Assembly: GCA_030427735.1 (NCBI GenBank) | Contig: JAUIBP010000004.1 | Location: forward strand, 186,001 to 250,000 | Length of the DNA stretch: 64,000 bases | From: Bacteroidia bacterium | GTDB lineage: Bacteria > Bacteroidota > Bacteroidia > Flavobacteriales > Flavobacteriaceae | Direction of reading: 5' to 3' | Part shown: piece after piece, positions 10,832 through 24,008 of the stretch | How the letters are laid out: each line of letters starts with the position of its first letter | How positions within the stretch are numbered: position 1 is the stretch's first letter | Translations under genes and position numbers: made by a program | The notes under the pieces: model-generated | Told to the model about the DNA's origin: nothing | Databases searched by the model: none | Seen by the model: the letters and a program-made list of their open reading frames with translations, nothing else

Positions 10832-11695
10832 TTAAGAATTAAATTTTGAGGTACGTTTTATAGCTTCTTCATTTTTCCATTCAATCCATCTTTGTCCTTT
10901 TAAGCGTCTCATAATGTTATCAAAATTTCGCATAATAAAGACATTGTATAACGCTTTGCTTAAATGTTTTGGGTTTCTGGCAATGGCTCTTAAACTCATA
11001 GAAAACCCAGGGGTTACGTAGCGCATATAATGCCAATAGCCTTCTGGCATGTATAATACTTCTCCGTGATTAAGTTCGGTTTTATAACCTTTGGCTTTGG
11101 TTAAAGCCGGCCATTTTTCGAAATCTGGATTATTAAAATCTATATCTTCTCTTGTAATAAGCGCATGTGGCACTTTATATAGGTATTTGTTTTGTTGTTG
11201 ATCGAATAATATGATTTGCTTTTTGCCTTCAAAATGAAAGTGAAAAATATTGGCCAAATCGATATCGTAATGCATGAAGGTGTACGAGTCGCGACCACCA
11301 AAAAAAAGCATGGGCAATCCCTTCATAAGGCGTAACCCAAAATCTGGGAACGAAAAATCGTTTTGTAATACAGGCACTTCTTTAAGGACATTCCATAAGA
11401 ATATCCTAAATTTTGTAGGTTCACGTTTAAGTAAGTCTATATACTCGCTCATTTTCATGGTGGCGTGGGGTTCGTTAAATCCGTCTTTATGGTCAACAGG
11501 TCTATCGTCGTAAAGTGGCACGGTTTTATCGCCTGCCACTTTTTTTATATAGTCTAAACTCCATTTCGAATACGCAGGCCAGTCGTCTATAAAATGTTCT
11601 ATAACCACAGGTTTTTGCGGTTTAAAATAATCTTTTATAAAAGCCTCTTTGGTAATGGATTTTACACGAGGTATGTCTTGAAGATTTAATTTCAA
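10832..11695 (-). CDS. JmjC-like cupin protein, probable Fe(II)/2-oxoglutarate dioxygenase
   Basis: The 287-residue protein has the cupin_8/JmjC pattern. An N-terminal part reads KPVVIEHFIDDWPA, and the metal triad is H142 and D144 in MHYDID plus H222 in GYWHYMR, with GEVLYMPEGYWH as the second cupin motif. Family members hydroxylate protein or RNA side chains using Fe(II) and 2-oxoglutarate; the substrate cannot be read from the sequence. No signal peptide is present, so it is cytosolic. It sits alone between a small barrel protein and a TonB receptor, on the same strand as both, with gaps over 30 bp. Confidence 0.8.
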   Translation of the reverse strand: MKLNLQDIPRVKSITKEAFIKDYFKPQKPVVIEHFIDDWPAYSKWSLDYIKKVAGDKTVPLYDDRPVDHKDGFNEPHATMKMSEYIDLLKREPTKFRIFLWNVLKEVPVLQNDFSFPDFGLRLMKGLPMLFFGGRDSYTFMHYDIDLANIFHFHFEGKKQIILFDQQQNKYLYKVPHALITREDIDFNNPDFEKWPALTKAKGYKTELNHGEVLYMPEGYWHYMRYVTPGFSMSLRAIARNPKHLSKALYNVFIMRNFDNIMRRLKGQRWIEWKNEEAIKRTSKFNS

Positions 11696-13627: not shown

Positions 13628-13650
13628 CCGCAAAAGTCGTAACTTTGCGG
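13628..13650. promoter_or_regulatory. Inverted repeat over the MocR promoter
   Basis: CCGCAAA (13628-13634) and TTTGCGG (13644-13650) form a perfect 7-bp inverted repeat with a 9-bp spacer. The right arm overlaps TAACTTTG (13640-13647), a TAnnTTTG promoter element reading toward the MocR gene. It could be a binding site or a hairpin; its position fits control of the divergent pair. Confidence 0.45.
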
Positions 13651-13693
13651 ACTATTAAACTAGTCCAGTTAAAAAACAATGAATAGTCCGGTT
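13649..13693 (+). promoter_or_regulatory. Candidate MocR operator with three TAGTCC half-sites
   Basis: GGACTA (13649-13654) and TAGTCC (13661-13666) form an inverted repeat with a 6-bp spacer. TAGTCCAGTT (13661-13670) recurs as TAGTCCGGTT (13684-13693), a direct repeat 23 bp apart that runs into the first codons of the gene. MocR regulators such as GabR bind spaced direct repeats, so this fits an autoregulatory operator just downstream of the promoter. Confidence 0.55.
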
Positions 13694-15193
13694 GATGAAC
13701 TAATAGAAACTTTAATAGATTTCGATAAAACTAAATCGAAACCAGTTTATATACAAGTTGCCGAGCAGTTGGTTAACCTTATTCAGCGTGGTTATATTTT
13801 AAAAGGAACTCGTTTGCCTGGAACGCGTGTTTTAAGTGAGCTTTTACAGGTGCATAGAAATACGGCTGTGGCTATTTACGACGAGTTAGCATCGCAAGGG
13901 TGGGTAGGTATTCTGCCAAACAAAGGCACATTTGTGTTGTTGCCAGAGCCTAAAACAGCAGCCATAAAAGCGCTAATAACTCCTGTAGATGGCGTAACCA
14001 CTTATGCTAAAACAACAGGATTTGTGTTTAATCCGGCTTTACATTTGGCACCAACGCAACAGCTTACAAAAGCGAAATACAGTATAAACGATGGTAAACC
14101 CGATTTAAGGTTGCATCCTACATTTCAGTTTTCTAGATGGTATAGTGCGGCTATGAAACGCAAACCTTTAATAAAGAAATGGAATCGGGATGCCGACAAC
14201 GATTTTTCTAATTTCGAAATACAGCTAAGTAATTTCTTAAATGCTACACGCGGATTTTATATTTCACCTAACAATTTAGTCAATACACGTAGCACCGAAA
14301 TGAGTTTGTACGTGGTGTCTCAGTTGTTGTTAAAGCAAGGCGATGTTGTACTTGTTGGCGAATTGAGTAACTATGCCGCGAATATGATATTTCAGCAAGT
14401 TGGTGCGCTTATTAAAACTGTTCCTGTAGATGCTCAGGGTTTAGATATCGATTTTATTGAAACCCATTACACAAAACACCCCATTCGTTGTGTGTATCTA
14501 TGTGCGCATCGTGATTACCCAACTACAAAAACATTAAGTGCAGAGCGGCGATTACAACTTTTAGAGTTAGCAAATACTTATGGTTTTGCTATTATTGAAG
14601 ATGATTTTGATTACGATTTCCAGTTCGATGGTTCGGCGATGTTGCCTATGGCGAGTTCCGATTCTAACGGTAATGTAATCTATTTAGGTAAGTTGGGGCA
14701 ATCGTTGTTTCCTAGTTTTCAAACAGGGTTTATCATTGCTCCAAAAACTGTTATTTCCGAAGCCAAGAATTACTTGCAATTATTGGATAAGCAGGGTGAT
14801 TTAATTCAGGAACAAATGCTTTCCGAACTTATTGCTGAAGGTGAAATTTACCGATTAATAAAAAAAAATATTATTGTTTATAAGCAGCGTCGCGATTATT
14901 TGTGTGCCCAATTAGCAAATCATTTTGGGGCTGAGTTGCAATGGGATATGCCTTCGGGAGGTTTGGCCATTTGGTTACAATTTAAACCGGAAATTTCGCT
15001 GGTAAGATTTGCCGAGAAGGCAGAAAAATATGATGTGTTTATACCAAAAACCTTATTGTATCAAACTAAAAATACGTGTGCAATTCGTTTTGGATTTGGC
15101 CATTTAAACGAAACCGAAATAGAGCGTGTTGTTGGTGCATTAAAATTAGCTTACAATGCTGTTTTGACAGAAACTAAGCAGGTACATAAATAA
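13679..15193 (+). CDS. MocR/GntR-type regulator with an aminotransferase-like domain lacking the PLP lysine
   Basis: The 504-residue protein has an N-terminal GntR winged helix (about residues 18-90, with LPGTRVLSELLQVHRNTA and a wing at PNKGTFVL) joined to a fold-type-I aminotransferase domain, the MocR architecture. In MocR proteins PLP is held by Lys in a GTFSKTLFPS-type motif. The same stretch here reads GKLGQSLFPS, which puts Gln at residue 341 (codon 14699-14701). The nearby Asp stretch IIEDDFDYDF and the C-terminal Arg in AIRFGFG are kept. It may bind PLP without a Schiff base, or another ligand. It is divergent from a TonB receptor, with repeat sequences at its own promoter. Confidence 0.88.
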   Translation: MNSPVDELIETLIDFDKTKSKPVYIQVAEQLVNLIQRGYILKGTRLPGTRVLSELLQVHRNTAVAIYDELASQGWVGILPNKGTFVLLPEPKTAAIKALITPVDGVTTYAKTTGFVFNPALHLAPTQQLTKAKYSINDGKPDLRLHPTFQFSRWYSAAMKRKPLIKKWNRDADNDFSNFEIQLSNFLNATRGFYISPNNLVNTRSTEMSLYVVSQLLLKQGDVVLVGELSNYAANMIFQQVGALIKTVPVDAQGLDIDFIETHYTKHPIRCVYLCAHRDYPTTKTLSAERRLQLLELANTYGFAIIEDDFDYDFQFDGSAMLPMASSDSNGNVIYLGKLGQSLFPSFQTGFIIAPKTVISEAKNYLQLLDKQGDLIQEQMLSELIAEGEIYRLIKKNIIVYKQRRDYLCAQLANHFGAELQWDMPSGGLAIWLQFKPEISLVRFAEKAEKYDVFIPKTLLYQTKNTCAIRFGFGHLNETEIERVVGALKLAYNAVLTETKQVHK

Positions 15194-15251: not shown

Positions 15252-17288
15252 CTATTTAGGGAATTTTGCTAAATTCTCTAAAGCGTTTACCATGGCAACT
15301 TCAACATCTACGTGGTCTTGTTTTAAAATGTTAAGACTTTCTGTAAATTGCTGTTTTGCAGTTTTAGAAATCGTTTTCTGATCTAAAACATCTAATAGTG
15401 TTTTAGAAACTACCGATAAGTTTTTAGATAATGGTTCTAAAGTGTTTAAAGTCGGATTTTTGTCTAAAGCCGAAAAGGCTTCGTATTGTGTATTCCAGGT
15501 GGTTAAGTATTTTTTTATTTCAGTTTTGGTTTTAGTAGTTGGTGCGGCGGTATAATTGGCCACCAATCTATTAAAAGCTACTGCATCTGGCGCATCTGCC
15601 ACACAGGCATCTGCAAAAAGCGTGAAAGGTGAGTATGTTTGGTACTCAATACCGTCTTTGTTTCGGGCATAAATCTTAAGCGGTTCGCAAACCTTTTGAA
15701 GCGTAATTAGCGATGAAATATCCTGATTATTACTCATACTTCTTAAAATAACGTCTCGGTTTTTTATATGCGTAACCCCTAATTCTTCTAACCTGAAGCT
15801 TATTGGTTGTATGCGTTTTAGCATGTTGTTTACATCGTTAATAGTTTTAGGCGACCATAAACGTTCTGCTATGGCAATGGTTCTTGGCCAAATTCTAGAA
15901 TCTATTGTTAAACTCGTAGTAAGCTCGCTCCACATGGTAGCTTCGCCTCCTAAAATTCTTGCGGTTTCTTCTTCGCTTAATGTAACATTGCCTATTGGTT
16001 CGGTTAAATAATGTTTTTCGATAGACTCCATTCTGTCGATGTAAAACCCATTCGATAAAATGGTGTTGTAACCTTTTTGGGCGGCTTCAATTAAGGTTCC
16101 GCCTTTAGGTAAACCTTCGTTTTCTCCACGCCAAGAGTGTATTACTGCTGTGGTAGGCATGGTTGGTGTTAAGATCTCATCCCAGCCAACTAATTTTTTA
16201 TCTAATTTATGAAGGATTTTTTCAATTTTTATATTGAAATAGGTTTGTAAATCGTGATTGGTTTTAAGGTTATGAGCAGCCTTAAACTTTTGAATGTCTT
16301 TGTTTTCATCCCAGTGCTTTCCTTCGTTTTCATCTCCACCAATATGAAAATAGTCGTCTGGAAAAAGTGGTGTGATTTCTGTGAAAAGTTGTTCTAAAAA
16401 CACATAAGTATCTTCGTTGGTAGGATCTAAAGTAGGATCGAACACCCCCGAGTTGCGTTCAATACTATATTCGTATCCTGGTTTGCTTCCTAAATTAGGA
16501 AAGGCAGTTAAAATAGCCGATGCATGTCCGGGAACATCTATTTCTGGTATTACGCGAATTCCTAAAGTATTGGCATAAGCTACCACATCTTGTATTTGCT
16601 CTTGGGTGTAAAATAAGCCATCCGAAGCCAAATCGGTAAGCTCTGGGAAGGTTTTAGATTGAATTCTAAAGCCTTGATCGTCTACTAAATGCCAATGAAA
16701 TACATTCATTTTAACAGCGGCCATGGCCTCTAAATTACGCTTAATAACGTGTACAGGATGAAAATGTCTAGACACATCTATCATTAATCCGCGCCAAACA
16801 AATCTAGGCTCATCGGTAATAGAAACACCAGGGATATAGTATGTTGTAGCCGTGTTGCTTATTAATTGTAATAGGGTTTCTAAACCTCTTACTATTCCTA
16901 CATCTGTACTGGCATTTAAATGTATGTTATTGTTAGTTACGGTTAGTTTGTAAGCCTCGTCGGTTTTAATGTTTAATGTGCTTACAGTAGTATAAGTAAG
17001 AATAATACTAGCGTCTTTACGGTTGTTTATAGTGCTAGGAAAGCCTTCTTTTAAGAACAATCCTGTACGACCCGATAAGCGTCTTAAAAATTTTGTTGCC
17101 GCAGTAGTAACACGATTAGACTTTGGGCCATCTATAGCAATGCTTAAGTCTGGAGTAAGCGTGAATTGTTGCTCTTGTGCGGATATTGTTTTTGGCCAAG
17201 GCATTAAGTTGAAGGTCTCCTGCAATGGCATTTGAGACCAACAACTATATGCAACTAAGCTAAAAATGAATATGAAAAATCGTTTCAT
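15252..17288 (-). CDS. GH20 beta-N-acetylhexosaminidase
   Basis: The 678-residue protein has a signal peptide (ends near CWSQ), a GH20 N-terminal domain (about 25-155) and the GH20 TIM barrel (about 158-505). The catalytic pair is Asp319-Glu320 in HIGGDE, and the barrel start DVSRHFHPVHVIKRNLEAMA is typical. The enzyme releases terminal GlcNAc or GalNAc from glycans through substrate-assisted catalysis, here most likely in the periplasm. The C-terminal 170 residues are helical and without a recognised domain. It is the last gene of the SusC-SusD-NagB/PIG-L operon, 3 bp after its neighbour, which points to GlcNAc-containing oligosaccharides as substrate. Confidence 0.92.
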   Translation of the reverse strand: MKRFFIFIFSLVAYSCWSQMPLQETFNLMPWPKTISAQEQQFTLTPDLSIAIDGPKSNRVTTAATKFLRRLSGRTGLFLKEGFPSTINNRKDASIILTYTTVSTLNIKTDEAYKLTVTNNNIHLNASTDVGIVRGLETLLQLISNTATTYYIPGVSITDEPRFVWRGLMIDVSRHFHPVHVIKRNLEAMAAVKMNVFHWHLVDDQGFRIQSKTFPELTDLASDGLFYTQEQIQDVVAYANTLGIRVIPEIDVPGHASAILTAFPNLGSKPGYEYSIERNSGVFDPTLDPTNEDTYVFLEQLFTEITPLFPDDYFHIGGDENEGKHWDENKDIQKFKAAHNLKTNHDLQTYFNIKIEKILHKLDKKLVGWDEILTPTMPTTAVIHSWRGENEGLPKGGTLIEAAQKGYNTILSNGFYIDRMESIEKHYLTEPIGNVTLSEEETARILGGEATMWSELTTSLTIDSRIWPRTIAIAERLWSPKTINDVNNMLKRIQPISFRLEELGVTHIKNRDVILRSMSNNQDISSLITLQKVCEPLKIYARNKDGIEYQTYSPFTLFADACVADAPDAVAFNRLVANYTAAPTTKTKTEIKKYLTTWNTQYEAFSALDKNPTLNTLEPLSKNLSVVSKTLLDVLDQKTISKTAKQQFTESLNILKQDHVDVEVAMVNALENLAKFPK

Positions 17289-17291
17289 CTA

Positions 17292-19220
17292 TTAAAAGTG
17301 ATAGCGTTTAAAGGCTTCGATAGCAGCATAATCTGCTAGGCCTAAGTCGTTGTATTTTTTTGCTGTTAAGCGATTTCTGTCTTCGGCACGCACCCAAAAT
17401 TCGCGCGAGTCGTCGCCTTGAAACATAACCCCATCTTTTTGAGATTGGTGATAAAAGATGGCATGGCGTTTTTTAAGTACCTGATCCGGGCTCATAGGCA
17501 CGGCCATTTCGATTTCGTAAGATTCCCATTCGTGCCAAGCACCACGGTATAACCATACCCAACAATCGTTCATGTAAGATTTTGGTTTTAGCACTTCTAA
17601 AGCTGTAAAGAGTGCATCTAAACAGACTTTATGTGTGCCGTGAGGGTCGGCTAAATCGCCAGCAGCATAAATTTGATGCGGTTTAACATTATCTATTAAA
17701 CTACACATAATATCTATGTCGTCTTGGGTTAAGCTTCCCTTTTTAATGGTTCCGGTTTCGTAAAAAGGCAGGTTTAAAAAATGAACATTGTCATCTTTTA
17801 AGCCCATGTATCGCGTTGCGGCTAACGATTCGCTTCGTCTTATAAATCCTTTTAGTTGTCTTACTTCTAAAGAGTCGATGTCCTTATCTGTTTTTGATTG
17901 CAGAAAGTCAATAATATTTTGAGCTTCAGTAGATTTTGGGTTTAATTTTAATGTGATTTCTGCAAATTTTAAGGCTTCTTCATCTGATACGGCAATGTTA
18001 CCAGAGGTTTGGTATGCAATATGTACTTCGTGACCTTGCTCGACCAATCTGTCGAAGGTACCTCCCATAGATATCACATCGTCGTCTGGATGCGGACTAA
18101 AAATGATAACGCGTTTCTTGGCAGGTGTTGCACGTTCTGGACGGTGTAAGTCGTCTGCATTCGGTTTTCCTCCTGGCCAACCTGTAATGGTGTGCTGTAG
18201 TTTGTTAAACATTTTTATGTTTAAGTCGTAAGCTGTGCCTTCTTCGGTTAAAAGTCCAGACATGCCATTATCGTTATAATCTTTGTCTGTAAGTTTTAAA
18301 ATAGGTTTGTTTAGTAATTCGCTTAACCAAACCACGGCTTTAATTTTTAAGTCGTCTGTCCAATAGCAAGACGTTACCAACCAAGGTGTTTTAACTCGAG
18401 TTAATTCAGACGAAGCTTCGCTATCGATAACAAAAGTAGTATTATCGTGGTCTTGCAAATAAGTTGCAGGAACATTAGCGGTCATGTCGCCTTCTATGGC
18501 TTGTTTTAAAATTTTGGCTTTGTTTAAGCCCCAACCTAATAATACAATGCGTTTAGCACTTTTTACAGTGCCAATACCCATGGTTATTGCTTTTCTAGGT
18601 ACGTTGTCTATGCCTAAAAACGCAGGAGCAGCATCTACGCGGGTTAGGTGGTCTAAGGTTATGCTTCGGGTGCCAGAGTTTAAATGCGAACCAGGCTCGT
18701 TAAACCCAATGTGCCCTGTACGCCCAATACCCAATAATTGAAAATCTAAGCCGCCATACGATTTAATTTTCATTTCGTAATCTATACAATATTGGTATAA
18801 ATCGTCTGTACTAACCATACCATTAGGTATGTTAATGTTTTCTGGCAGTATGTCTACATGATTAAAAAGATGTTCGTGCATGAAATAAAAATAACTTTGG
18901 ATGTTATCTTTACTCATTGGGTAATACTCGTCTAAGTTAAAGGTTACTACGTTAGAAAAACTTAAACCTTCTTCTTTATGCATTCTAACCAGTTCTTCGT
19001 ATACTTTTATTGGTGAAGAACCTGTTGCTAAACCAAGTACACAGGGTTTATTTTCTTTTTCTTTTTGTATGATTAAAGCTGCTATTTCTTGGGCAACTAT
19101 AATTGATGCTTCGTTTGAAGAGTCGAAAATTACATTGTGTATTTTCTCGAAACGGGTTTCTTCAAACTTTCCAGCCTCCTTGTAGGCTATACTTTTAAAA
19201 TCAGTACTATCTACTTTCAT
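17292..19220 (-). CDS. nagB: Glucosamine-6-phosphate deaminase fused to a PIG-L/LmbE deacetylase-like domain
   Basis: The 642-residue protein joins two domains. Residues 25-275 are NagB, with phosphate-loop ATGSSP (65-70), DEY (97-99) and GHIGFNEPG (169-177), the residues that bind and deaminate glucosamine-6-phosphate to fructose-6-phosphate. Residues 368-642 are a PIG-L/LmbE domain with PHPDDD (376-381) and DPHGTHK (525-531), the zinc-binding motifs of GlcNAc deacetylases. Both sets look intact. The long form is common in this phylum and usually annotated as NagB only. No separate NagA lies in the locus, so the second domain may supply the deacetylation step; this is inference. No signal peptide, hence cytosolic. 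Confidence 0.92.
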   Translation of the reverse strand: MKVDSTDFKSIAYKEAGKFEETRFEKIHNVIFDSSNEASIIVAQEIAALIIQKEKENKPCVLGLATGSSPIKVYEELVRMHKEEGLSFSNVVTFNLDEYYPMSKDNIQSYFYFMHEHLFNHVDILPENINIPNGMVSTDDLYQYCIDYEMKIKSYGGLDFQLLGIGRTGHIGFNEPGSHLNSGTRSITLDHLTRVDAAPAFLGIDNVPRKAITMGIGTVKSAKRIVLLGWGLNKAKILKQAIEGDMTANVPATYLQDHDNTTFVIDSEASSELTRVKTPWLVTSCYWTDDLKIKAVVWLSELLNKPILKLTDKDYNDNGMSGLLTEEGTAYDLNIKMFNKLQHTITGWPGGKPNADDLHRPERATPAKKRVIIFSPHPDDDVISMGGTFDRLVEQGHEVHIAYQTSGNIAVSDEEALKFAEITLKLNPKSTEAQNIIDFLQSKTDKDIDSLEVRQLKGFIRRSESLAATRYMGLKDDNVHFLNLPFYETGTIKKGSLTQDDIDIMCSLIDNVKPHQIYAAGDLADPHGTHKVCLDALFTALEVLKPKSYMNDCWVWLYRGAWHEWESYEIEMAVPMSPDQVLKKRHAIFYHQSQKDGVMFQGDDSREFWVRAEDRNRLTAKKYNDLGLADYAAIEAFKRYHF

Positions 19221-19317
19221 TTTATTATCTTTTGATAAAGCAAACGGGAATGTGTTTTTCCCGTTTACTTTGTGAACTAATCAAATACTCGCTTGGTTTA
19301 AACTAACTACTATTCTA

Positions 19318-20910
19318 TTAGAAATTTGGTAATCCAGTATCCCACCAAAGTCTAGTACCACCAGTATCTGGCCCTTTTAACATGCCAACTGCAGCTTCTA
19401 CATTAGCACCATTGGTGTTTTTTTCGTTATCTACAAAATTGATTCTGCGTACTTGTATATTGGTATCTATAGCGCCACCACTATTGTTTACTACCACAGG
19501 AAATACTCTTGGGTAGCCAGTACGTCTAAACTCGCTCCAGGCCTCTTGTCCGTCTGGGAACATCGCAATCCATTTTTGGGTAATAATTTGCTCTAATTGT
19601 TCTTCTCTTGAGCCAGCTTCGTTGTAAGCTATTTTTACGTCGCTAGGGTAAGTGTAATTGTTTGTTGGGTTTAGCGCATCAACAAAATCGTTAGGCGTAC
19701 TGGTGTTATCGGCTAAATAGTTGTCTACACCACCAGCTCCAAATTGTGCAAAAGAGGCACGAACACCGGCTTCGTAATTAGTCTTAGCATCTCCAGCTCC
19801 AGCCCAACCGCGTAAGGCAGCTTCGGCTTTTAAGAAATGAACTTCGGCAGCTGTCATCCAAATTTTATTTGTTCCGTCAACAGCTTCTCCGATAAGCGAG
19901 TGGCTGCCGTATTCGGTTTTAGCTTCAATAGCAATACCCATACGTACACCTTTATAATCGCCTAAATTAGCATCGGCAGGGGCGGTAAAGAATTTAGAAA
20001 TTCTAGAGTCGTTAAAGCCTTTAAGAATCGATTCCATTTCTGCACTCATTACTACATCTCCCCAAACACGGCTAATGGTTTGGATAGGATGAACAAAGCC
20101 ACCCATGTCTATTAACATATTTTGTGCTTCCATTAGGCCAGCATTGCTAGATAAAGCTTTTTCGCCTTCGGTTTGTGCTAGCGTAGGGTTTACTTTAGAT
20201 ATGCGTATGGCTAAGCGTAAACGTAGTGAGTTTGCAAAGGTTCTCCAGGCAGCAATATCTCCACCAAGATTAGATTGGTCGAAAGCAGTAAACTGAGCAT
20301 CGTCTGTAAAAGATTCCAATCCGTTAATGGCTTCATCTAAATCGGCGAAAAAAGCTTGGTAAGCTATTTCTTGCGAATCGTATTCGCCAGTAGTATCGTA
20401 ATCGTTGTATTTTGAGTAACGGATTGGTCCAAATACATCGGAAACACGATGCATGGCCATTACTTTAATGATATTGGCCAGATATACGAATTTAACTCCG
20501 CTTTCGTCGCCAGAAAGTTCTACTTGTTGTACTATTTCTCGGGCGTATGGCATGACACCATTTCCATCATTAGCATCGTAAGCATCGCTCCAAATAAAAC
20601 CATTCCAGCCGTTAACTAGGGCATAGGTCTGGTTGTTAATATTACCAGCAAATGGTGTTGGAGCTGTCATGTATCCAGAAAACACATCGGCATTTAGGTT
20701 TTGCTGTAATTGGTAGTTCCAAGCTGGTTCTACACGAATTACATTAGAAAATAAAGGCGAAAATCTAGAGCCAATATGGTTGTTTTGTTGTGTTAAGCTT
20801 TCTTGTGAAATGCCGTAGGGATTGGTGTTGATGTCCTCGAAATCTCCTGTACAGTTTGTTAAGCTTATGGCTATTGCGGAAGCCATTGTATATTTAAGTA
20901 TATGTTTCAT
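19318..20910 (-). CDS. SusD/RagB-family nutrient-binding outer-membrane lipoprotein
   Basis: The 530-residue lipoprotein has a signal peptide with lipobox ending at Cys20 (SLTNC) and the N-terminal FEDINTNPYGI motif shared by many SusD-like proteins. It forms the surface lid that captures glycans for its SusC partner, which precedes it by 5 bp on the same strand. It belongs to the SusD/RagB group with helical TPR-like repeats. The downstream NagB-PIG-L and GH20 genes suggest GlcNAc-containing oligosaccharides as ligand. Confidence 0.92.
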   Translation of the reverse strand: MKHILKYTMASAIAISLTNCTGDFEDINTNPYGISQESLTQQNNHIGSRFSPLFSNVIRVEPAWNYQLQQNLNADVFSGYMTAPTPFAGNINNQTYALVNGWNGFIWSDAYDANDGNGVMPYAREIVQQVELSGDESGVKFVYLANIIKVMAMHRVSDVFGPIRYSKYNDYDTTGEYDSQEIAYQAFFADLDEAINGLESFTDDAQFTAFDQSNLGGDIAAWRTFANSLRLRLAIRISKVNPTLAQTEGEKALSSNAGLMEAQNMLIDMGGFVHPIQTISRVWGDVVMSAEMESILKGFNDSRISKFFTAPADANLGDYKGVRMGIAIEAKTEYGSHSLIGEAVDGTNKIWMTAAEVHFLKAEAALRGWAGAGDAKTNYEAGVRASFAQFGAGGVDNYLADNTSTPNDFVDALNPTNNYTYPSDVKIAYNEAGSREEQLEQIITQKWIAMFPDGQEAWSEFRRTGYPRVFPVVVNNSGGAIDTNIQVRRINFVDNEKNTNGANVEAAVGMLKGPDTGGTRLWWDTGLPNF

Positions 20911-20915
20911 TTTTC

Positions 20916-23900
20916 TTAGAAATTTACGTTAATGTTTAACCCGATGCTTCTTGTAGAAGGCTGGTTATAAATGTCTACCCCTTGTAAGCCCATTCCTGTA
21001 CTAGCAGCAATGTTTGGATCGAATGGCGCATCTTTGTAGAAAAAGAACAAGTTATTGGCGATTAATGAAAAGTTGATGTTGTCTATAAAATCGCTGTGCT
21101 CTAATAATAATCTGTAGCCTACAGAAAGTTCTCTTAAACTAACATTGGTAGCGTCGTAAACATATTCGCCTAGCATACCATCTCTACCACCAACGGCATT
21201 GTAGTATTCTTGTGCACTTAATTGTGAAGCAACACCGCTTTCGTTAACTACATTTATCATACCGCCGTTTCTGTTACGCGCGTCTGCCGAAGCTTGCGAT
21301 ACACCGTATTTATCGTTTACGGCTTCGGTAACACTCATTACGTCGCCACCAAATTTACCATCGATAAGGAAGTTTACATGAAAATCGCCTATCTCAAAAC
21401 TGTTATTCCAACCTAAGGTAAAGTCTGGTTGCGCATGTGCTACGGTTTCGAAATCGGTAGACATTAAAGTTCCAGACGAGTTGATTACTGGAGTACCGTT
21501 CTCGTCGCGAATTACAGATCTTGCTTTTATGCTACCAAAATCTTCGCCTTCAATTAAAGAATATTCATAACCGTTTACACCGCGTGCAGTAACAATAGCC
21601 TCGCCATCTTGTAACGATGGGTGTACAGCAACAACTTTATTGTTGTTTTCAGCAAAGTTAATAGAGGTATCCCAGATAAATTTGTCTGCTACCACAGGTT
21701 TAGCGTTAACAACCAATTCGATACCTTTACTTGATATTTCTCCAGCGTTTACAATGTTTTGAGCATATCCGTTAGGGTTTGGCTCTGCTTGGATGTAGAA
21801 AATCTGATTATGTGTTCTGGTGTCGTAGTACGTGAAATCGAAGCCTAAGCGGTTACCAAAGAAGCGCCATTCTGTACCTATTTCAAATCCTTTTTGGCGT
21901 TCTGGCTCTAAAGTTTCACCCTCTAAAGGCGCAAAAGGAGCTGTACCAATACCTGTGTTGGTATTGTTAATAGTGTTTAACGGAATTGTCGCGTAAACAG
22001 GTATGTCTTTACCTACCTCGGCGTAAGACCCTCTAAGTTTAGCAAACGAAATACCATCGCCCATATCGAACATTTCTGTTAATACTGCTGTTAAACCTGC
22101 AGACGGGTAGAAGAACGAATCGGAATCTGTGTACACTAAGGTAGACGACCAGTCGTTACGACCTGTAACATCTAAAAATAACATGTCTTTGAAACCAAAG
22201 TTAGCCGAACCAAAAACAGATTGTACCTCTCTGTTAGAAACCGCCTGTCTGATGTTATTAGTTGTTGCAAAGTTGGCTATATTGAAAATGTTCGGATAAT
22301 TTAAACCTACGCCATCACGACCAGAATCTAAATACACTTGATCGCCTAATTTGTATTTTGTTAAGCTGGTACCTAAAAGTCCAGAGAAGGTAAAGTCTTC
22401 AGAAAAATCTTTATTGTACGATGCGATTAAGTCGATGTACTGTTGCGTGTTTTCAGTCTTTTCTAAAATATAGCGTCCGTTATCTCCAGAGTTTACAGGG
22501 TCGGTTCCTGCATATTGTCTTTTGTCGAAGGTGAAAAAGGTCTTGTCGAAACTTCCTCTAGATTGTAAAGAAAATGCTTCAGTAATTTGATATTTTACCG
22601 ACACGTTAGCTAGCACGCGTTGTGCGATGTCTTTACTAGGACTTCTGTTAATTAACCAATATGGGTTTTGTTGTATGTTTTCGTCGAAAGACGTTGCGTA
22701 CTGATCCATTTGGTTTAATGCTGTATTGAAATACTCGTATTTATTTTTGTATGTATCTCGGCTTATTCCTACAGGATGTAAGTATACTCCAGTTAACGGG
22801 TTAGAGTATAAACCGTTGGTCGGACGGTTCCAGATGCGTTGGTCGGAAAGGTTAATATTTGCCGATACATCTATCTTATCGTCTAAGAATTTTGCTGTTT
22901 CTCTTAACGTTATATTGTTTCTGGTTAAGCGGTTACCCGGAATAACACCTTCGCCTATAGTATTTGCATACGAAAAATACGTTTGAGCTTTGGCATTACC
23001 AGCTGTTAAGGATAACGCATTAATAGAGGTGTATCCTGTTTGGAAAAAATCTTCGGCATCGTTGCTTAAGCCATCAGTTTTTGCTCCCCAAGATTTAGGA
23101 TCTGCAACACGTCCGTTTTCTGCAATAGGTTGTCCTACCGAAGCACTTTGGTATTCCGATTGTAATTTAGGTAAAGACATAACATTGTCTACAGTAAAGC
23201 TAGAATTAAAGTTTACCGATAATGCACCTTCTTTTCCTTTTTTAGTAGTAATTAAAATAACCCCGTTAGCCCCTTGGCTACCATATAGTGCCGAAGCCGA
23301 TGCTCCTTTTAAAACCGTCATGCTTTCGATATCGTCTGGGTTAATTAACGACATGGCATCTCCACCATCGCGGTTACCAGTTTGGCTACCAAAAATATCG
23401 GTTCCTGGCTCGTTACCGTTAGACCCATTACCACTGTTAAGCATAGGTATACCATCTATAACATATAGTGGGTCGTTGTTGGTGGTAGAGGTATTTCCCC
23501 TTAAAACAACTTTAGTAGCACCACCTAAACCAGATGAACTTCTGGAAATGGTTAAACCAGCAGATTTACCAGATAAGCTATTAATAGGGTTGGTTTGTTT
23601 TACGCGAGTTAATTCGTCGCCACCTACTTCTTGAGCCGAGTAGGTTAAAGCTTTTTTCTCTTTTTGAATCCCTAAGGCGGTAACTACAACTTCGTTAAGT
23701 TGTTCGCTATCTTCACCTAGTTCAACATTGTAAACATCAGAGGCGCCAACTGTTACCTCTACAGTGGTCATTCCGAGGTAAGAGAATTTTAAAACGTCGC
23801 CAGTGCTGGCTGTAATGGTATAATTACCATCAAAATCTGTTAATGTTCCGGTAGATGTACCTTTTACAAGTACATTTGCTCCTGCAACGGGCATGCCATC

Positions 23901-24008
23901 TACAAGAGAAGTAACAGTACCTTTAATGTCTTTCTCTTGAGCAAACAGGAGTTGCATGCTAAAGAATAAGAAAGAACATAAGAAAGTCATTCTTAAATAG
24001 TGTTTCAT
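20916..24008 (-). CDS. SusC/RagA-family TonB-linked outer-membrane transporter
   Basis: The 1030-residue transporter has a signal peptide, a carboxypeptidase-D-like domain (about 25-105, with KGTVTSLVDGMPVAGANV), the TonB-linked motif LNEVVVTALG (about 104-113), a plug domain with PLYVIDGIPM and GSQGANGVILITTKKG, and a long barrel ending in an aromatic. These are all SusC hallmarks. With the SusD-like lipoprotein it imports oligosaccharides into the periplasm. It is the first gene of a four-gene operon and faces a LytS/LytTR two-component pair across 238 bp, the likely regulator. Confidence 0.95.
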   Translation of the reverse strand: MKHYLRMTFLCSFLFFSMQLLFAQEKDIKGTVTSLVDGMPVAGANVLVKGTSTGTLTDFDGNYTITASTGDVLKFSYLGMTTVEVTVGASDVYNVELGEDSEQLNEVVVTALGIQKEKKALTYSAQEVGGDELTRVKQTNPINSLSGKSAGLTISRSSSGLGGATKVVLRGNTSTTNNDPLYVIDGIPMLNSGNGSNGNEPGTDIFGSQTGNRDGGDAMSLINPDDIESMTVLKGASASALYGSQGANGVILITTKKGKEGALSVNFNSSFTVDNVMSLPKLQSEYQSASVGQPIAENGRVADPKSWGAKTDGLSNDAEDFFQTGYTSINALSLTAGNAKAQTYFSYANTIGEGVIPGNRLTRNNITLRETAKFLDDKIDVSANINLSDQRIWNRPTNGLYSNPLTGVYLHPVGISRDTYKNKYEYFNTALNQMDQYATSFDENIQQNPYWLINRSPSKDIAQRVLANVSVKYQITEAFSLQSRGSFDKTFFTFDKRQYAGTDPVNSGDNGRYILEKTENTQQYIDLIASYNKDFSEDFTFSGLLGTSLTKYKLGDQVYLDSGRDGVGLNYPNIFNIANFATTNNIRQAVSNREVQSVFGSANFGFKDMLFLDVTGRNDWSSTLVYTDSDSFFYPSAGLTAVLTEMFDMGDGISFAKLRGSYAEVGKDIPVYATIPLNTINNTNTGIGTAPFAPLEGETLEPERQKGFEIGTEWRFFGNRLGFDFTYYDTRTHNQIFYIQAEPNPNGYAQNIVNAGEISSKGIELVVNAKPVVADKFIWDTSINFAENNNKVVAVHPSLQDGEAIVTARGVNGYEYSLIEGEDFGSIKARSVIRDENGTPVINSSGTLMSTDFETVAHAQPDFTLGWNNSFEIGDFHVNFLIDGKFGGDVMSVTEAVNDKYGVSQASADARNRNGGMINVVNESGVASQLSAQEYYNAVGGRDGMLGEYVYDATNVSLRELSVGYRLLLEHSDFIDNINFSLIANNLFFFYKDAPFDPNIAASTGMGLQGVDIYNQPSTRSIGLNINVNF

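What the first reader, a model, noticed from the sequence alone, without database searches (positions are those of the whole stretch)
14687..14720. MocR-type regulator with Gln in place of the PLP-binding lysine
In MocR proteins PLP is bound by Lys in a motif of the form G-T-[FL]-S-K-[ST]-L-F-P. The aligned stretch here is GKLGQSLFPS, with Gln341 at the Lys position, while other cofactor-site features (DDFDYDF, C-terminal Arg in IRFGFG) are kept. Such a protein cannot form the normal internal aldimine, so it may sense PLP non-covalently, an amine-PLP adduct, or another ligand. With a divergent TonB receptor it may represent a MocR branch with a new mode of sensing.
Basis: partly seen in the sequence, partly recalled or inferred. 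Interest (0 to 1): 0.62.

Follow-up and report, generated by a model that had tools for sequence, protein, structure and literature searches.

The report
BioL-derived MocR lacking its PLP lysine
A bacterial gene regulator built on a vitamin-B6-enzyme scaffold has lost the lysine that holds vitamin B6, in a whole family of marine bacteria; gene neighbours and ancestry suggest it now controls an outer-membrane importer for biotin (vitamin B7) or its precursor in species that can no longer make biotin.

Summary
The 504-aa MocR-type protein at 13679-15193 (+) has Gln341 at the Schiff-base lysine position (GabR Lys312). It is not an error: Gln occurs in 107 of 109 other homologous loci (one Lys, one Arg). 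The rest of the PLP site is not kept: the phosphate Arg is Gln/His and the stacking Tyr is Asn. The pyridine-N Asp and a C-terminal Arg survive. About ten pocket changes are fixed together, which looks like a re-specified pocket rather than decay.

The clade lies inside the superclade of BioL, the MocR repressor of biotin synthesis reported to sense the PLP-reactive amine AON. Relatives next to bioE-F-D-B-A keep Lys and Arg (18/18); many next to a TonB receptor or bioB alone have lost one or both. The TonB receptor is divergently adjacent in every Gln-clade locus, and in 10 of 80 bioB follows it directly. 35/37 Gln-clade genomes lack bioA; seven have only bioB, so should need dethiobiotin. The BioL-type operator TAGTCCGGTT is preserved, partly inside codons 3-5.

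Best reading: a PLP-independent BioL derivative controlling biotin/dethiobiotin uptake, probably sensing a biotin-like ligand non-covalently. The ligand and the receptor's cargo are inferred, not shown.

The parts
13679..15193 (+). MocR-architecture regulator (BioL-superclade, 'Gln clade'), 504 aa
   Evidence: ORF; GntR wHTH PF00392 E=1.6e-9 at residues 24-86; AF2 model pLDDT 90.8, aminotransferase domain residues 109-498 matches 1x0m Z 42.4 and GabR domain Z about 38
13748..13936 (+). GntR-type winged-helix DNA-binding domain (residues 24-86)
14699..14701 (+). codon of Gln341 at the Schiff-base Lys position
   Evidence: Gln in 107 of 109 other loci
14720..14722 (+). codon of Gln348 at the PLP-phosphate Arg position (GabR Arg319)
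   Evidence: Q59/H22 of 81 in the Gln clade, R in 18/18 bioEFD-linked relatives
14369..14371 (+). codon of Asn231 at the PLP-stacking aromatic position (GabR Tyr205)
   Evidence: N75/H6 of 81; Tyr 18/18 in bioEFD-linked relatives
14600..14602 (+). codon of Asp308 (GabR Asp279, pyridine-N Asp), retained
   Evidence: D 81/81
15086..15088 (+). codon of Arg470 (canonical aminotransferase carboxylate Arg), retained
   Evidence: R 81/81; aligned with the Arg of 1x0m
13640..13647 (+). TAACTTTG, Bacteroidetes -7 type promoter element of the regulator gene
   Evidence: sequence; conserved in consensus TAACTTTcCGGAC; promoter role inferred from known TAnnTTTG motif
13648..13654 (.). CGGACTA, inverted operator half-site overlapping the promoter
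13661..13670 (+). operator half-site TAGTCCAGTT
13684..13693 (+). operator half-site TAGTCCGGTT inside codons 2-5 of the regulator (direct repeat, 23 bp from the previous one)
   Evidence: AGTCCGGTT in 77/80 Gln-clade and 40/44 other BioL-superclade loci, against 55-62% mean top-codon share at other conserved S/P/V codons
11789..13609 (-). divergent TonB-dependent receptor (BtuB-like fold, not a BtuB equivalog), predicted biotin/dethiobiotin receptor
   Evidence: PF00593, PF07715; TIGR01779 161 bits against cut-off 599.7; adjacent in all Gln-clade loci; followed by bioB in 10/80 loci

Best explanation
The gene encodes a derivative of BioL, the MocR-family biotin repressor, that has given up PLP chemistry. 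Shown by sequence: it has a GntR wHTH plus an aminotransferase fold; Lys, phosphate Arg and stacking Tyr are all replaced and the replacements are fixed across a Flavobacteriaceae clade; the BioL-type operator (inverted CGGACTA and direct repeats TAGTCCRGTT at 13648-13693, one inside its own coding start) is preserved; a TonB receptor is always divergent from it. Inferred: the dimer binds this operator and represses both its own gene and the TonB receptor, plus bioB where bioB follows the receptor. It is released or tightened by a non-amine, carboxylate-bearing ligand in the remodelled pocket, most likely biotin or dethiobiotin that has been taken up. BioL is reported to sense AON, an amine that can condense with PLP. 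Most Gln-clade hosts cannot make AON, so the pocket lost the Lys and was re-specified. The receptor would be the outer-membrane entry point for biotin or dethiobiotin.
For: Tree with positions 341 and 348 masked: the Gln clade nests in the BioL superclade (SH-aLRT 100) with the bioE-F-D-B-A-linked regulators. BioL is a MocR reported to sense AON (PMC12915131). TonB receptor divergent in 110/110 loci; tonB followed by bioB in 10/80, and by coordinates in G061, G115, G135, G155, G164. bioA absent in 35/37 Gln-clade genomes. bioB in 9/37 against 160/261 other family genomes, Fisher p 2.8e-5, relatedness not corrected. Seven genomes have bioB but no bioA or bioD, the dethiobiotin-salvage variant A1 of PMC6593275. 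The window genome has no bioA, no bioB and no bioD above cut-offs, no BioY, and a 243-aa biotin ligase without room for a DNA-binding domain. Site intact in 18/18 AON-operon-linked and 14/55 other regulators with a tonB or bioB neighbour. Pocket re-specified: N231, R278, C275, K338, Q341, F344, S346 each at 93-100%. Operator conserved at the nucleotide level.
Against: No ligand, transport or binding data exist; cargo and effector are inferred from gene neighbourhood. TonB linkage came before the Lys loss: many TonB-linked relatives keep Lys and Arg even though their genomes lack bioA (e.g. G753, G842), so loss of AON synthesis does not by itself explain the Lys loss. Three genomes with a damaged site do carry bioA (G858, G870, G845). 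The independent-pairs test had only 4-5 pairs and is not significant. BioY is absent in all 37 genomes, so the inner-membrane step is unknown. In 70 of 80 loci bioB is not next to the receptor.
Confidence: 0.62

Rival explanations
1. The protein still senses PLP, or a preformed PLP-amine adduct (e.g. PLP-AON), non-covalently in the old site.
For: Asp308 (pyridine-N Asp) and Arg470 are invariant. Lys-to-Gln or Lys-to-Ala aminotransferase mutants are known to hold external aldimines (general knowledge).
Against: The phosphate Arg is Gln/His in 81/81, the stacking aromatic is Asn/His in 81/81 and the Ser before the Lys is Gly. In BioL, K340A behaves as a null (PMC12915131). Most host genomes lack AON synthesis.
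Confidence: 0.12
2. The aminotransferase domain is only a dimerisation scaffold: a constitutive repressor whose site is decaying under relaxed selection.
For: Site residues vary freely in sister lineages (K, R, N, S at 341; R, Q, S, G at 348; at least 10 and 7 changes).
Against: Inside the Gln clade the pocket is not relaxed: Q341 79/81, K338 80/81, F344 81/81, R278 81/81, R470 81/81, Q377 100%.
Confidence: 0.15
3. The module handles another nutrient (cobalamin, haem or a siderophore); the bioB linkage is local and secondary.
For: The best receptor model hit is the B12 receptor TIGR01779 (161 bits). bioB is adjacent in only 10/80 loci.
Against: The score is far below the 599.7 cut-off; no cobalamin riboswitch or other Rfam hit in the window; regulator ancestry and operator are those of BioL; bioB-only genomes need dethiobiotin.
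Confidence: 0.15
4. The regulator works through the biotin ligase, sensing biotinyl-5'-AMP or ligase status, instead of binding biotin or dethiobiotin itself.
For: The only biotin ligase found in the genome has no DNA-binding domain, so another protein must carry the signal.
Against: No evidence of contact; the pocket signature argues for a small ligand.
Confidence: 0.06

Closest known systems
BioL of Elizabethkingia meningoseptica (MocR repressor of bioEFD and bioBA; PMC12915131)
   Same: GntR wHTH plus aminotransferase domain; same superclade as the regulators divergent to bioE-F-D-B-A; operator TAGTCCGGTT shared between the bioEFD-linked and Gln-clade loci studied here; biotin ligase without DNA-binding domain in both hosts
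   Different: BioL has Lys340 and needs it; here Gln341, Gln/His348 and Asn231. BioL controls synthesis and is reported to sense AON; here a TonB receptor is the neighbour and AON is mostly not made. The E. meningoseptica protein itself was not aligned here (sequence not held)
PdxR of Bacillus clausii (7pq9, 7zla)
   Same: best full-length sequence relative in the PDB (E 1.5e-32), same fold; NCBIfam PdxR model 250 bits
   Different: below the PdxR cut-off of 320 bits; PdxR binds PLP through its Lys
GabR of Bacillus subtilis (4mgr, 4n0b, 5x03)
   Same: same two-domain architecture, Foldseek E 1.2e-31
   Different: GabR uses Lys312, Arg319, Tyr205 for PLP; none is conserved here
PdxO-linked MocR regulators of Bacteroidetes (L113-L122; compare PdxQ/PdxW of PMC5320631)
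   Same: 35-38% identity, same operator words TAGTC/GGACT near the start codon
   Different: Lys and Arg intact; next to a PdxO-like flavoprotein gene
BtuB / TIGR01779 B12 receptors
   Same: TonB plug and barrel, closest curated model
   Different: 161 bits against a cut-off of 599.7, no cobalamin riboswitch found

Membership tests
MocR subfamily (architecture: GntR wHTH + fold type-I aminotransferase domain) | N-terminal GntR wHTH | tested here: met
   PF00392 E 1.6e-9, 37.7 bits over cut-off 27
MocR subfamily (architecture: GntR wHTH + fold type-I aminotransferase domain) | C-terminal aminotransferase-like domain | tested here: met
   phmmer to PdxR, GabR; AF2 pLDDT 90.8; Z 42.4 to 1x0m over 381 residues, rmsd 2.5. 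Pfam gives no aminotransferase hit at E<=0.001
PLP-dependent MocR regulators | Schiff-base Lys (GabR Lys312), described as conserved in all MocR clusters (PMC6677901) | tested here: not met
   Gln341; Gln in 107/109 other loci
PLP-dependent MocR regulators | phosphate Arg and PLP-stacking aromatic | tested here: not met
   Q/H348 81/81, N/H231 81/81
PLP-dependent MocR regulators | pyridine-N Asp (GabR Asp279) | tested here: met
   D308 81/81
PLP-dependent MocR regulators | PLP binding | not testable with these tools
   needs purified protein
BioL | descent from the clade of MocRs linked to bioE-F-D-B-A | tested here: met
   superclade SH-aLRT 100, BioB/D/A identified over NCBIfam cut-offs; E. 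meningoseptica BioL sequence not available for inclusion
BioL | essential PLP Lys (K340) | tested here: not met
   Gln341; K340A is null in PMC12915131
BioL | control of the biotin synthesis operon in the same genome | tested here: not met
   no bioA, bioB, bioD over cut-off in the window genome
PdxR | NCBIfam NF052282 cut-off (320 bits) | tested here: not met
   250.4 bits
BtuB (neighbouring receptor) | TIGR01779 cut-off (599.7 bits) | tested here: not met
   161.3 bits
TonB-dependent receptor (neighbouring receptor) | plug and beta-barrel domains | tested here: met
   PF07715 and PF00593 over cut-offs

The most novel reading that the evidence does not exclude
A MocR branch in which an aminotransferase-fold sensor has become a PLP-independent, direct biotin or dethiobiotin sensor. 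It would control a TonB-dependent outer-membrane receptor for biotin or dethiobiotin, serving biotin-auxotrophic marine Flavobacteriaceae that have neither BioY nor a BirA repressor. Several independent losses of the Schiff-base lysine in TonB- or bioB-linked BioL relatives would be parallel steps on this path.
Probability: 0.42. Interest if true: 0.8.

Novelty: new variant of a known kind. Interest (0 to 1): 0.62.

Why it matters
MocR regulators are described as conserving the PLP lysine in every cluster (PMC6677901), so a large clade that has fixed a glutamine there, while keeping and re-specifying the pocket, is a natural experiment in turning a cofactor enzyme into a plain ligand sensor. 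The biotin context gives a testable candidate for two open questions in Bacteroidetes: how biotin or dethiobiotin crosses the outer membrane in auxotrophs, and what senses biotin supply when the biotin ligase has no DNA-binding domain.

Tried and rejected
Sequencing error: rejected by 107 Gln homologs. Another Lys at the Schiff-base position: Lys338 lies three residues off and is Arg in three homologs; no gap in the alignments. Cobalamin riboswitch near the receptor: none in the window, and none in eight related loci. Functional link to the cupin_8 gene 10832-11695: present in only 30 of 82 loci, so probably synteny only. Other operator sites in the genome: TAGTCCRGTT has 11 hits against 10 for the reversed control, so no regulon could be read from the short word. 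BioY as inner-membrane partner: absent in 37/37. Independent-pairs test of Lys loss against operon type: too few pairs (4-5), not significant. First AF2 model (20 sequences) had pLDDT 70.8 with a poor active-site loop; replaced by a 90-sequence model at 90.8. The original BioE/BioL PNAS 2025 paper is not held, so the published BioL binding site could not be compared with TAGTCCGGTT. Automatic names: NCBIfam's nearest label PdxR is below cut-off.

Full report
Observation. The ORF at 13679-15193 (+) encodes 504 aa with a GntR winged helix (PF00392, residues 24-86) and a fold type-I aminotransferase domain. An AlphaFold2 model from 90 aligned sequences has pLDDT 90.8 and pTM 0.85. It matches the archaeal aminotransferase 1x0m at Z 42.4 over 381 residues (rmsd 2.5) and the GabR and PdxR domains at Z about 37-38. 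Sequence alignments place Gln341 (codon 14699-14701) on the Schiff-base Lys of PdxR and GabR. The finding as written is correct.

Not an error, not rare. Searches of 298 genomes of the same family and of a species-level genome collection gave 109 other homologous loci at 64-76% identity (the two sets may share some species). Residue 341 is Gln in 107 of them, Lys in one (Lutibacter citreus, L054) and Arg in one (a Polaribacter, L069).

The rest of the PLP site. Relative to GabR, the phosphate Arg319 is Gln or His (81/81), the stacking Tyr205 is Asn or His (81/81) and the Ser before the Lys is Gly. The pyridine Asp279 is kept (D308, 81/81), as is the canonical carboxylate Arg (R470, 81/81). Several other pocket columns switched together and are nearly fixed: K338, F344, S346, R278, C275. 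A decaying site would drift; this one has been re-specified.

Neighbours. In all 110 Gln-clade loci a TonB-dependent receptor gene is divergently adjacent; no other neighbour is constant. The receptor resembles BtuB but scores 161 bits against the 599.7 cut-off, and the window has no cobalamin riboswitch. In 10 of 80 loci the gene directly after the receptor, on the same strand, is biotin synthase bioB. Genome coordinates show the same arrangement in G061, G115, G135, G155 and G164.

Ancestry. The closest relatives with an intact site stand divergent to a complete bioE-F-D-B-A operon (L111, L159-L162 and others). BioF, BioD, BioB and BioA were identified with NCBIfam, the last three over cut-off; the BioE-like protein has no NCBIfam model and is named by its position and by PMC12915131. 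This is the arrangement of BioL, the MocR repressor of biotin synthesis that is reported to sense 8-amino-7-oxononanoate and to need its Lys340 (PMC12915131). The E. meningoseptica BioL sequence itself was not available for the tree. In a tree with positions 341 and 348 masked, 77 BioL-like regulators form one clade with support 100, and the Gln clade lies inside it. All 18 regulators linked to the AON-making operon keep Lys and Arg. Of 55 linked to a TonB gene or to bioB alone, 14 keep both. At least ten changes at 341 and seven at 348 are needed on this tree, with Arg, Asn, Ser and Gln appearing at the Lys position.

Limits of that pattern. A phylogenetically independent test had 4-5 pairs only and is not significant. 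Many TonB-linked regulators keep the full site although their genomes have no bioA above cut-off, and three genomes with a damaged site do have bioA. So Lys loss follows dedication to uptake or bioB only as a tendency, and not simply loss of AON synthesis.

Host metabolism. bioA is absent in 35 of 37 Gln-clade genomes. bioB is present in 9 of 37, against 160 of 261 other genomes of the family (Fisher p 2.8e-5, not corrected for relatedness). Seven of the nine have bioB but neither bioA nor bioD above cut-off. This is the bioB-only salvage variant described in PMC6593275, which needs dethiobiotin from outside. The window genome has none of bioA, bioB or bioD above cut-off, no BioY, and a biotin ligase in a 243-aa ORF with no room for a DNA-binding domain.

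Operator. The region 13640-13693 holds TAACTTTG (the Bacteroidetes -7 type), CGGACTA, TAGTCCAGTT (13661-13670) and TAGTCCGGTT (13684-13693); the last two are 23 bp apart and the last lies inside codons 2-5 of the regulator. The codons AGT CCG GTT are identical in 77 of 80 Gln-clade loci and 40 of 44 other BioL-superclade loci. Other conserved Ser, Pro and Val codons share their commonest codon in only 55-62% on average. The DNA site is thus held by selection at the nucleotide level and is shared with the regulators of the biosynthesis operon, which supports an unchanged DNA target and autoregulation. Binding itself was not tested.

Mechanism proposed. The dimer binds the operator between the two genes and represses receptor and self. 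A biotin-like carboxylate ligand in the remodelled pocket, without PLP, sets the response. Shown: architecture, loss and replacement of PLP residues, neighbour, operator conservation, gene content. Inferred: repression, ligand, receptor cargo.

Novelty. The family architecture is known and a BioL with Lys is known. A fixed Lys-less, pocket-re-specified branch tied to a TonB receptor was not found in the held literature: only four papers hold both MocR and TonB, and their titles and abstracts concern other subjects. It is a new variant of a known kind.

Noticed in passing
L130:1-1500 (G254 contig C1): A degenerate extra copy of the Gln-clade regulator with several internal stops sits at a contig end, in a genome that also has an intact copy; an apparent pseudogene.
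   Followed up: no
L054 (Lutibacter citreus) and L069 (Polaribacter): Single changes of Gln341 to Lys and Arg inside the Gln clade; the phosphate Arg stays lost in both (Q348), so Lys alone is unlikely to restore PLP binding. Useful natural controls.
   Followed up: partly
L205/L225 (G868), L220 (G807), L163 (G550), L164-L165 and L209-L216: Further BioL-superclade regulators with Asn, Ser or Arg at the Schiff-base position, in other Bacteroidetes families; parallel losses.
   Followed up: partly
window 10832-11695 (-): Cupin_8 (JmjC-like) protein gene downstream of the receptor; conserved in 30 of 82 loci, more likely synteny than function.
   Followed up: partly
window 15252-24008 (-): Beta-N-acetylhexosaminidase, a 642-aa protein that looks like a glucosamine-6-phosphate deaminase fused to a PIG-L/LmbE-type deacetylase domain, and a SusD/SusC pair: an apparent GlcNAc/chitin-type utilisation locus convergent with the regulator gene.
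   Followed up: no
L113-L122, L138-L151: PdxO-linked MocR regulators of Bacteroidetes with TAGTC/GGACT words near their start codons (seen in several of L113-L125), suggesting that the operator-in-start-codon arrangement is older than the BioL split.
   Followed up: partly
window 13679-15193: Pfam-A reports only the GntR domain and no aminotransferase domain for this protein at E<=0.001; automatic annotation may call it a generic GntR or PLP-dependent protein.
   Followed up: yes
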